Source of the DNA: Pseudanabaena sp. lw0831
Lineage (GTDB): Bacteria > Cyanobacteriota > Cyanobacteriia > Pseudanabaenales > Pseudanabaenaceae
DNA length: 64,000 nucleotides
Direction of reading: 5' to 3'
Assembly (NCBI RefSeq): GCF_016584665.1
Contig: NZ_BBJB01000054.1
Span: forward strand, 1 to 64,000
Shown in pieces: positions 16,575-19,944 of this stretch (the stretch's first letter is position 1; each line of letters starts with the position of its first letter). The notes under the pieces are model-generated. The model did not search any database, was not told where the DNA came from, and saw only the letters and a list, made by a program, of their open reading frames with translations. A program made the position numbers and the translations under genes.

Positions 16575-16588
16575 TCGCCGATAGGCGA
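16575..16588 (-). other. Small hairpin downstream of the variable-region-like 3' end
   Basis: 5-bp stem TCGCC/GGCGA with a 4-nt loop, about 80 nt after the stop of the caspase-STAND-FGE gene. Some diversity-generating retroelements need a hairpin just past the variable region; whether this is such an element is speculative. Confidence 0.3.
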
Positions 16589-16663: not shown

Positions 16664-16790
16664 TCACCGCACAACACACACAACCCGAAAACCGAGGTAG
16701 CCGTACTGAAAACGCGCGTTGCGACCGTCGTTGCGAAACGCAGAACGACAATGCTCAGCATTGTCGATCCACGAACCACCACGCAGCATT
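16664..16790 (-). other. Candidate DGR variable region (3' end of the FGE domain)
   Basis: The last about 42 codons encode RGGSW, then scattered substitutions, CRSAFRN, and end with GYLGFRVV just before the stop. DGR targets with an FGE/CLec fold end this way, and the sequence GGTTTTCGGGTTGTGTG resembles their initiation-of-homing end. A 10-bp-arm palindrome (16746-16766) lies inside. No template repeat or reverse transcriptase is visible in the window, so any DGR would act from elsewhere. Confidence 0.45.
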
Positions 16791-19477
16791 TTTCTCGTTT
16801 TGCTGCCTTCTTCATAATTCGTAACATTTTCTGTCCAAATTTGTGAATCTGTTGGCGCTCCTTCGTAACTGTCATGACAATCATCGGCACACCATTCCCA
16901 AACATTGCCATGTAGATCGTAAAGTCCCCAAGCGTTAGGTCGTTTTTGCCCAACAAGTCCCGTTTTGCTGTCGCTATTTTCTTTATACCAAGCATATTCC
17001 CCAAGCTGACCTTCATCGTCACCAAAGCAATATTCTGTATGTGATCCCGCACGACAGGCATATTCCCATTCTACTTCGCTAGGCAGTCGATAGGTCTCTC
17101 CTGTCAGTTGAGATAGCCGCGCACAAAACTCTTGAGCTTCGTACCAATCTACCTTTTCGACAGGGCAATCTTCACCACGAAATTGCGAAGGGTTTAGACT
17201 CAGATCGATCTCGACCTTGGGCGACATCGCCACCGTCCGCCATTGCGCCTGCGTGACGGGATACTTACCCATCTGAAACGCTTTTACCGTAACTTGATGA
17301 TATGGCTTCTCATCCTCACGTCCTTTTCCTTCAGTCGAACCCATCCAGAATGTGCCGCTAGGAATATCCACCAGTTCGGGCAGATTCGCGCGATCAAGCC
17401 ACGGCTTGTATTTATAAAGACTTTGCCGCACGAATTCCTGTTGTTCGGGCGTGAGGTAATCGTTAATCGCAACTTCCACTTCCTCGATTTGGGCAACCAC
17501 ACCTTCAGACAATAAAAACTTGTCGTTGCATTGCTGGTTCTGCCACTGCTTGAAGTCATCATTGATGCGATCGCAAAGTCTTCTCAAATCCCGATCTTGC
17601 GATCGCCATTCAACAAACATTTCCCAACCATCCATCAACGCCTCATGCGCCAAATCCACAAAAGCAATATTATTCTCATCACTTGCCACCAATAGCCGCC
17701 CATCAGCCCCCGCGAAAATTTCTAACAAATTAGCGATCTCCTCTCGATCAGCTTCCGATCTCGCCATCCCTAACAAAAACTGTTTCGACTGTCGCTGCCG
17801 CGTGTCCCTAACATCCTGCCCCGTCCGCACCAACTTCAAAAACAAACGTTTCGCCCACTTGCGCTCCTCATCCGATCGCAATACATCCTCATACAACCGC
17901 TTAGCATGACGATCCAACGCGCCGCGTAACTTGCCCATCTCTAAATAGGCAACCAAAGTCAATCGATGATTTTGGCGATCGCGGCGTTCCCATAACTCCG
18001 TCAGCGCAAACTCCAATAACGGCAAACTATTTTTCTCAGCTTCCACATCCTCACAAATTGCCTCTAGCAAACCCTCTGCGAGTTCGTAGCCTTGCATTTG
18101 CGCGGGCTTCGCGATCGCCTCTTTCATCTCAGACAGTTCTAACGGCACTAACCAAAATACGCGATCGCGTTGGATCAACCTTGCTAAAGCAGGATATTGC
18201 AACGCCTGTTCCACAAAATCAGCTCTCATCGTTGTGGCGATCGTTAAGCGTCCCTCTTGCTCGGCTCCTTCCACCAACAGCCGTATAAAATCTTGTCGTT
18301 CCTGCTCACTCGGACAAACCGTAAACAACTCCTCAAACTGATCCACCACCAGCAAAACTCGCTGCGATCCTTCAGGCAAAATCGCATTCAAACCTTCCGA
18401 TTCTAGCCGCGCATAAGCCCTCTGAATTTCCGCAGGTAACTTATAAAACTGCTGTACCAGCGATTGCTTTAACATCATCAATGGATTTGCCCAAGGCTTC
18501 ATCGGCGGCAGTACACACCAGCCCTGCTTTGCTAAATTCGTCATCAAACCCGCTTTCACTAGCGATGATTTACCGCTACCCGAAGCGCCAATCACAGGCA
18601 CAAATCGCGATTTTTCAATCTTTCTCAACAACAAATCAAGCTGCTCTTCTCTACCATAAAAATACTGAGCAGTCTTTTGATCGAAGGCTTCCAATCCCAC
18701 ATAAGGACAAGTTTCATTCACCACAGGCGCAAGATTCCCCCTAGCCTTCTCAATCAAAGTAATCGCACCACCCATCGCCGATCGCACCACCTCCTGACCG
18801 CTTTGCTTCAGCCTTTGCGATACCTCACTAAACAAACTGTCAAGATCCACCGCTTCCCCAGTCGCAACCCTTGCGCGTAGCACCTCCAATACCGCCGCCG
18901 TAAAAATGCCATGCTCCACACCCTCACGCGATCGCTCAAACCCACGACAAGCCGCCATTAAGTAATAATTCTTCTTATCATTAAAAACCTTTTGCATCGC
19001 CTGATATTGAACGCTCTCAATCAAATTCCCCGCATGACAACAATCCAGCAACACCACCAGATTAGTTAACTCCGACTTCGCCACTAGCTTGGTAAAAACA
19101 TCAAAGCTCAGCGCATTTTGACCATCCTTACCCGCATCCGTCGCCGCCAAATACCCAATCTCATCGCCAACCACATCAGGGACAACAAACCCATGCCCCG
19201 CAAAATAAATCAGCGCATCTTTGCCCTTAGCTTGCTCTAACAAAAAAGTTTTCAGCTTAGCCGTGAGATCGCTCCCCTTCACCTCTTTCTTAGGATCTCG
19301 ATCTAACTCATAGCGATTTTCATCGCCTGCAACGAGCTTGCGTGGTAAAGGCTCGATCGCATAATGCCCATGTTGCTCCAATATTTCCGCGATCGCCCCT
19401 GCATCATTTACCGTTTTTTCGAGATTACGAAAATTGCTATAACGCGCAATACCAATAACAAGGGCAGATCGAGCCAT
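16664..19477 (-). CDS. Caspase-like / STAND NTPase / FGE-sulfatase fusion protein
   Basis: 937 aa in three parts. Residues 1-240: peptidase C14 caspase-like domain with catalytic His95 in YFAGHGF and Cys in LLDCCHAG (146/147). Residues about 256-690: STAND-type NTPase with GREEQ, Walker A GASGSGKSS (297-305) and Walker B LLVVDQFEEL. Residues about 700-937: formylglycine-generating-enzyme/C-type-lectin-like fold with IPSGTFWMGS, TYRLPSEVEWEYA, GLYDLHGNVWEW and LRGGSW near the end. The layout fits bacterial conflict systems in which the C-terminal fold senses a ligand and the NTPase releases the protease. The last 40 residues resemble variable regions of diversity-generating retroelements. A Trypco1-like gene starts divergently 95 bp away. 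Catalytic residues look intact. Confidence 0.85.
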   Translation of the reverse strand: MARSALVIGIARYSNFRNLEKTVNDAGAIAEILEQHGHYAIEPLPRKLVAGDENRYELDRDPKKEVKGSDLTAKLKTFLLEQAKGKDALIYFAGHGFVVPDVVGDEIGYLAATDAGKDGQNALSFDVFTKLVAKSELTNLVVLLDCCHAGNLIESVQYQAMQKVFNDKKNYYLMAACRGFERSREGVEHGIFTAAVLEVLRARVATGEAVDLDSLFSEVSQRLKQSGQEVVRSAMGGAITLIEKARGNLAPVVNETCPYVGLEAFDQKTAQYFYGREEQLDLLLRKIEKSRFVPVIGASGSGKSSLVKAGLMTNLAKQGWCVLPPMKPWANPLMMLKQSLVQQFYKLPAEIQRAYARLESEGLNAILPEGSQRVLLVVDQFEELFTVCPSEQERQDFIRLLVEGAEQEGRLTIATTMRADFVEQALQYPALARLIQRDRVFWLVPLELSEMKEAIAKPAQMQGYELAEGLLEAICEDVEAEKNSLPLLEFALTELWERRDRQNHRLTLVAYLEMGKLRGALDRHAKRLYEDVLRSDEERKWAKRLFLKLVRTGQDVRDTRQRQSKQFLLGMARSEADREEIANLLEIFAGADGRLLVASDENNIAFVDLAHEALMDGWEMFVEWRSQDRDLRRLCDRINDDFKQWQNQQCNDKFLLSEGVVAQIEEVEVAINDYLTPEQQEFVRQSLYKYKPWLDRANLPELVDIPSGTFWMGSTEGKGREDEKPYHQVTVKAFQMGKYPVTQAQWRTVAMSPKVEIDLSLNPSQFRGEDCPVEKVDWYEAQEFCARLSQLTGETYRLPSEVEWEYACRAGSHTEYCFGDDEGQLGEYAWYKENSDSKTGLVGQKRPNAWGLYDLHGNVWEWCADDCHDSYEGAPTDSQIWTENVTNYEEGSKTRKMLRGGSWIDNAEHCRSAFRNDGRNARFQYGYLGFRVVCVVR

Positions 19478-19572: not shown

Positions 19573-19944
19573 ATGTCAGAAGTGCAAGAGCTAGTCGTCA
19601 AAGACGAAAACGGCGAAGAATTCTCAATTTACATCGCACCTAAAGAACCCTACAACGAACCCGACTCAGAGGAAGGATATCGCGACAACTTACCCACCGT
19701 TGACCTCAAAAAAGTCCATGACACCATTCGCGGCTACACCACCTATGCGATCGGCGCATTTCGGAACCTTAGCACAGTCGAAGTCGATAAAATCACCCTC
19801 AAGTTCAGCCTCAAAATTGGCGGCAAAGCGGGTATTCCCATGTTGACAGAAGGCTCTGCCGAAAGCAACTTTGAGATTCAAGTTGAATGCAAATTTCCAC
19901 CAAAACCAACTCCCACTCCAACCGCTAAGCAATCATCTCCATAA
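19573..19944 (+). CDS. Trypco1-like (CU044_2847 family) protein
   Basis: 123 aa. The start EVQELVVKDENGEEFSIYI, a central helix, and then KITLKFSLKIGGKAG followed by EGSAESNFEIQVEC match the pattern of the trypsin-co-occurring domain 1 / CU044_2847 family: a beta strand, a helical middle, and a strand pair with F-x-L-K and A-x-x-N-F. A Pro/Thr-rich tail ends the protein. The family is reported near NTP-dependent conflict systems. It is divergent from the caspase-STAND-FGE gene with a shared 95-bp promoter region, so the pair probably works together. An AAGGAAAGG ribosome-binding site precedes the ATG. Confidence 0.65.
   Translation: MSEVQELVVKDENGEEFSIYIAPKEPYNEPDSEEGYRDNLPTVDLKKVHDTIRGYTTYAIGAFRNLSTVEVDKITLKFSLKIGGKAGIPMLTEGSAESNFEIQVECKFPPKPTPTPTAKQSSP

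What the first reader, a model, noticed from the sequence alone, without database searches (positions are those of the whole stretch)
16664..16790. Possible orphan target of a diversity-generating retroelement
The 3' end of the caspase-STAND-FGE gene looks like a DGR variable region: RGGSW, CRSAFRN, and GYLGFRVV just before the stop, with GGTTTTCGGGTTGTGTG at the end. Known cyanobacterial DGR targets pair such folds with caspase or STAND domains. No template repeat or reverse transcriptase is in the window, so the element would be remote or lost. A palindrome lies inside (16746-16766) and a small hairpin lies downstream (16575-16588).
Basis: partly seen in the sequence, partly recalled or inferred. 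Interest (0 to 1): 0.68.

Follow-up and report, generated by a model that had tools for sequence, protein, structure and literature searches.

The report
Orphan target of a lost hypermutator
The end of this cyanobacterial self-destruct-type gene was once rewritten at random by a reverse-transcriptase mutation machine that can no longer be found in the genome; a relative still holds its template, so the case is real but belongs to a known kind.

Summary
The finding holds. The gene at 16664-19477 (-) encodes caspase–nSTAND1–FGE in a Pseudanabaena genome. Its 75 bases at 16694-16768, followed by GGTTTTCGGGTTGTGTG, are a variable region (VR) of a diversity-generating retroelement (DGR). A matching template lies in congener G022 beside a truncated DGR reverse transcriptase. 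The window VR differs from it at 14/28 adenines but 3/44 other bases (p=4e-5); 17 VRs of this class give 264/476 against 59/748. Five ordinary FGE genes of the same genome show no such bias. The genome (99.97% complete) holds at least four VRs of two template classes, but no template, template-spacer RNA or DGR reverse transcriptase was found, while 11 congeners have full-length ones. So it is an orphan target, presumably frozen now. Congeners show cores decaying in other ways. FGE–VR–flank modules have also been exchanged between genes. The palindrome is incidental; the downstream hairpin is a conserved, terminator-like end of VR genes. Orphan targets are known in Treponema denticola and caspase DGR targets in cyanobacteria: a new member of a known kind.

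The parts
16664..19477 (-). Target gene, 937 aa: caspase (aa 3-226) - nSTAND1 (aa 258-651) - FGE/C-type-lectin fold (aa 699-933)
16679..17383 (-). FGE-sulfatase domain that carries the variable region
16694..16768 (-). VR core, 75 nt; differs from the G022 template at 14/28 A and 3/44 non-A positions, plus one extra codon
16677..16693 (-). IMH-like block GGTTTTCGGGTTGTGTG, shared exactly with the second VR at C93
16570..16663 (-). Conserved 3' flank (GAGGACTCCCTTCTCTG... pyrimidine-rich), alike in sister VRs although non-coding; similarity ends just behind the hairpin
16575..16588 (-). Hairpin TCGCC-TATC-GGCGA before a T-rich run; conserved position and changed stems in sister VRs; probably an intrinsic terminator
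16746..16766 (.). Palindrome inside the VR; incidental product of the present VR letters
19573..19944 (+). Divergent neighbour with a Trypco1 domain (effector-associated component), likely partner
   Evidence: partnership inferred

Best explanation
The 3' end of the caspase-nSTAND1-FGE gene is a genuine VR of a cyanobacterial DGR whose core (template, spacer RNA, reverse transcriptase) has been lost from this Pseudanabaena genome. In the past, RNA of a template much like the one still present in congener G022 was copied by a DGR reverse transcriptase that misreads adenines, and the cDNA replaced 16694-16768, anchored at the IMH. This randomised residues on the presumed ligand-binding face of the FGE (C-type lectin) fold. 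The protein is probably a sensor (FGE) coupled to a STAND switch and a caspase effector, with Trypco1 as partner: an abortive-infection type conflict system whose recognition surface is now frozen and changes only by ordinary mutation and by recombination of FGE-VR-flank modules. Shown: the A-biased VR/TR relation, the sister VRs, no detectable core in the assembly, decayed cores in congeners, module exchange. Inferred: retrohoming as the past mechanism, the sensor function, and that absence means loss rather than an assembly gap.
For: A-bias of the window VR against the G022 template: 14/28 against 3/44, p=4e-5, permutation p=2e-5; pooled 17 VRs 264/476 against 59/748. Negative control: five non-VR FGE tails of the same genome, 38-47% of mismatches at A, p 0.11-0.63. 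Second class-A VR in the own genome, 20/28 against 3/44. The template stands next to a DGR-type RT remnant. No DGR RT in the own genome by profile, with full-length matches in 11 congeners; the only RT is retron-like. No template by DNA or pattern. No spacer RNA by covariance model, with E of 1e-22 or better in 10 of the 11 RT-bearing congeners. FGE domain aligned in register with T. denticola variable protein 1.
Against: The genome is a draft of 118 contigs, so a missing core is not fully excluded. The template is from another species, so 3 non-A differences and one extra codon need a slightly different lost template. No population data show when the VR last changed.
Confidence: 0.9

Rival explanations
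1. Active remote target: the DGR core (template, RNA, reverse transcriptase) is in the cell but missing from the assembly, for instance on a plasmid or in a collapsed repeat, and still acts in trans.
For: Trans action on remote targets is described for cyanobacteria and Thiohalocapsa (PMC7517822, PMC10907252). The two class-B VR genes of this genome have 3' flanks 99% identical but VRs only 67% identical, suggesting fairly recent rewriting; upstream of the VR they are also only 72% alike.
Against: 99.97% completeness; RT profile, template DNA, template pattern and spacer RNA are all empty while congeners ring. Several congeners with VRs also lack a full-length DGR RT.
Confidence: 0.08
2. Not a VR: the C-terminus is an ordinary FGE domain and the motifs are general features of the fold.
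For: The RGGSW/CRSA/GFRV motif occurs in ordinary FGE genes of the same genome.
Against: Those genes show no template-A bias, the window VR does; a matching template next to an RT remnant exists in G022.
Confidence: 0.01
3. The VR was imported ready-made: the FGE-VR-flank module came by recombination or horizontal transfer from another species, and no DGR ever acted in this lineage.
For: FGE-VR-flank modules do move between N-terminal halves: caspase/STAND 92% but FGE 80% identical to P. frigida, the reverse for G005, and a different VR class in the UWO311 gene.
Against: At least four VR genes of two classes at separate places in this genome and cores widespread in the genus make a resident core in the past more likely. 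Both can be true.
Confidence: 0.2

Closest known systems
Treponema denticola isolates that keep DGR target genes without RT and TR (PMC4891356)
   Same: Targets with A-biased VRs persist as remnants in genomes without the core; repeated gain and loss of DGR types; FGE/C-type-lectin fold
   Different: There the contrast is between isolates of one species; here between species of Pseudanabaena, and the target is a cytosolic caspase-STAND protein
Cyanobacterial DGR remote variable proteins with orthocaspase and C-type-lectin domains (PMC7517822)
   Same: C-terminal VR in a C-type-lectin domain, N-terminal orthocaspase, dispersed targets near transposases
   Different: Those remote targets were tied to a DGR of the same genome; this genome has no DGR core. 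A search of the held library found no paper with both DGR and Pseudanabaena
DGR-diversified STAND antigen sensors of multicellular bacteria, Thiohalocapsa PB-PSB1 (PMC10907252)
   Same: nSTAND1 targets with C-terminal FGE VR, effector-associated adapters, protease effectors; mobile elements degrade DGR parts
   Different: There most targets vary in nature and cores are mostly present; here effector and sensor are fused in one chain and the core is absent

Membership tests
DGR variable region (target side) | Near-repeat of a template with mismatches concentrated at template adenines | tested here: met
   14/28 against 3/44, p=4e-5; the template is in congener G022; negative controls flat
DGR variable region (target side) | Lies at the 3' end of a C-type-lectin/FGE gene and is followed by an IMH shared with the template | tested here: met
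   FGE-sulfatase domain; GGTTTTCGGGTTGTGTG shared with the G022 template
Complete DGR in this genome | Template repeat in the genome | tested here: not met
   only VRs found
Complete DGR in this genome | DGR-clade reverse transcriptase in the genome | tested here: not met
   profile of DGR RTs empty, positive controls in 11 congeners; only RT is retron-like
Active DGR target | Variation at template-A positions between cells or strains | not testable with these tools
   one genome per species held, no reads
Bordetella-type hairpin/cruciform behind the VR | Short inverted repeat close behind the IMH with GRNA loop | tested here: not met
   hairpin lies 74-103 nt behind the IMH, loops GTCA/TATC/TTT/TGT, T-rich run follows
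Caspase-STAND conflict sensor | Caspase and nSTAND1 domains with an effector-associated partner gene nearby | tested here: met
   biological activity itself not tested

The most novel reading that the evidence does not exclude
In Pseudanabaena the DGR core is a transient module, repeatedly lost and regained, while a set of caspase/STAND sensor genes keeps conserved docking ends (IMH block plus 3' flank) across species; genomes without a core keep targets ready to be rewritten when a core returns.
Probability: 0.15. Interest if true: 0.7.

Novelty: new member of a known kind. Interest (0 to 1): 0.45.

Why it matters
It is a statistically tested orphan DGR target in a caspase-STAND sensor, and it exposes a genus-wide decay series of DGR cores: intact, RT truncated, VR fused to the spacer RNA, targets only. 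Two questions become testable: whether a frozen, formerly hypermutable immune-type sensor keeps a useful specificity, and whether such targets can be addressed again when a core is regained. It also warns that VR genes are missed, or read as active, when only genomes with a DGR are surveyed.

Tried and rejected
1) The retron-like RT at C3:52048 as the missing DGR RT: rejected; it fits retron RT models, reads TGSPSSP where the DGR RTs read LPIGNLTSQ, and is not matched by the DGR-RT profile. 2) C93:33760 as the template: rejected; it is a second VR in another caspase-FGE gene. 3) The palindrome 16746-16766 as a DGR element: rejected, not conserved. 4) The hairpin as a Bordetella-type cruciform: less likely than a terminator. 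5) A class-A core on viral contigs, phages or plasmids: no exact IMH match among viral contigs, no phage match, only weak FGE-gene matches on three cyanobacterial plasmids. 6) Dating the last diversification from the P. frigida ortholog: inconclusive, because its FGE domain is more divergent (80%) than caspase/STAND (92%), suggesting module exchange, and that gene has an insertion with a stop. 7) C48:62990 looks like a VR but fits neither tested template; left open. 8) Rfam had no match for the spacer RNA.

Full report
OBSERVATION. The gene at 16664-19477 (-) encodes 937 aa with caspase, nSTAND1 and FGE-sulfatase domains. Its end reads RGGSW-IDNAEH-CRSAFRNDGRNARFQYGYL-GFRVVCVVR. The string GGTTTTCGGGTTGTGTG (16677-16693) occurs exactly twice in the 5.26-Mb genome, here and at C93:33852. 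The protein motif alone proves nothing: five other FGE genes of this genome end in a similar way.

THE TEMPLATE IS IN A RELATIVE. The genus is Pseudanabaena (P. frigida ULC066bin1 has the closest gene, 85% identity). In congener G022 a non-coding repeat TGGAACAACAATGCTCAGAATTGTCGGTCTGCGTATCGCAACAACAACAATGCGCGTAATCAGAACAACAACATCGGTTTTCGGGTTGTGTGCG lies between an FGE target gene and a DGR reverse transcriptase remnant of 144 aa that begins shortly before the YVDD motif. Rich in AAY codons, it is a classical template. The window VR differs from it at 14 of 28 adenines and at 3 of 44 other bases (Fisher p=4e-5, permutation p=2e-5). Seventeen VRs of this class from ten genomes give 264/476 against 59/748; three VRs of G022 and the one of G020 match at all 44 non-A bases. 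Mismatch rates by template base are A 0.56, C 0.10, G 0.06, T 0.07. Five non-VR FGE tails of the same genome show no bias. The few non-A differences of the window VR (for example CAG to GAG, where C93 has GGG) are what a slightly different lost template would give; this is inference.

THE OWN GENOME HAS TARGETS BUT NO CORE. Class-A VRs: the window and C93:33760, which differ at 20/28 template-A sites and 3/44 others. Class-B VRs: C38:1726 and C101:1889, A-biased against the template of congener G009; their 3' flanks are 99% identical while their VRs are 67% identical. The C101 gene lacks its front part, with a transposase gene directly upstream. The only RVT_1 match is a retron-like RT. A DGR-RT profile finds nothing here but finds full-length RTs in 11 congeners. 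The template as DNA query and a generic template pattern find only VRs. A covariance model of the conserved spacer RNA behind templates finds nothing here but matches 10 of the 11 RT-bearing congeners with E of 1e-22 or better; G019 is missed at that level. The genome is 99.97% complete, so joint absence of all parts is best explained by loss; a draft of 118 contigs leaves a small chance of a gap.

A DECAY SERIES. In the genus I see intact RTs (11 congeners), a template with a truncated RT whose front part is gone (G022), a VR fused directly to the spacer RNA without template or RT beside it (G020), a bare spacer relic (G022:747402), and targets only (this genome, P. frigida = G014, G005 and others). 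The class-A template itself was found in G022 alone, although class-A VRs occur in ten genomes.

MODULE EXCHANGE. Compared with P. frigida, caspase/STAND is 92% identical, FGE 80%, VR 67%, IMH block 97%, 3' flank 84%, beyond it 56%. Compared with G005 the FGE is 84% but caspase/STAND only 58%. The UWO311 gene has a VR and flank of another class. So the unit FGE-VR-IMH-flank has moved between N-terminal effectors, as proposed for other DGR targets (PMC10907252, PMC7517822). For this reason the VR difference from P. frigida cannot date the last rewriting.

THE HAIRPIN. Most sister VRs carry, 74-103 nt behind the IMH, a 5-7 bp stem, a 3-4 nt loop and a T-rich run. Stems differ between classes with both arms changed (TCGCC/GGCGA, AGCGCC/GGCGCT, AAGTGCC/GGCACTT). 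No template has it. Hairpins of this style occur elsewhere in the window. An intrinsic terminator is the simplest reading; a role in homing is not excluded.

FUNCTION. The FGE domain aligns with T. denticola variable protein 1, a DGR target, with the VR in register. The divergent neighbour encodes a Trypco1 domain. By analogy with DGR-diversified STAND sensors (PMC10907252), the protein is probably a sensor-switch-caspase of an abortive-infection type; this is inference. With the core lost, its recognition face is frozen.

NOVELTY. Orphan targets in genomes without RT and TR are described for T. denticola (PMC4891356), and caspase/STAND/C-type-lectin targets for cyanobacteria and other multicellular bacteria (PMC7517822, PMC10907252). 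The case is a new member of a known kind, with the genus-wide decay series as its more interesting side.

Noticed in passing
L196:4990-5270 (G020:C1, about 1410 kb): A VR-bearing caspase-FGE gene runs directly into the template-type 3' end (GTGAGTACT) and spacer RNA, with no template and no RT beside it: apparently a VR/TR recombination that deleted the template.
   Followed up: partly
L089:9773-10720 (G022): Class-A template followed by a DGR RT reduced to its C-terminal 144 aa; in the same genome several distant VRs match the template at all non-A bases, so the loss looks recent.
   Followed up: partly
L016:1707-4115 and L017:1508-2011 (G000 C38 and C101): Two class-B VR genes with nearly identical 3' flanks (99%) but different VRs (67%); the C101 copy lacks its front part behind a transposase gene.
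   Followed up: partly
G000:C48:62990-63093: A further FGE gene with IMH-like GGTTTTCGAGTTGT and a later GTGAGGACT, possibly a VR of a third template class; no matching template found.
   Followed up: no
alignment A2 / model R1 (spacer behind DGR templates in Pseudanabaena): A conserved, structured RNA of about 150 nt lies behind DGR templates, is found with strong scores in most RT-bearing congeners and has no match in Rfam; it could serve as a marker for DGR cores.
   Followed up: partly
L001:1297-2232 (G000:C3): Retron St85-like reverse transcriptase next to a small helix-turn-helix-like gene, the only RT found in this genome.
   Followed up: no
L118:8519-8610: The P. frigida copy of the window gene has an insertion of about 100 bases with an in-frame stop in its FGE domain.
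   Followed up: no
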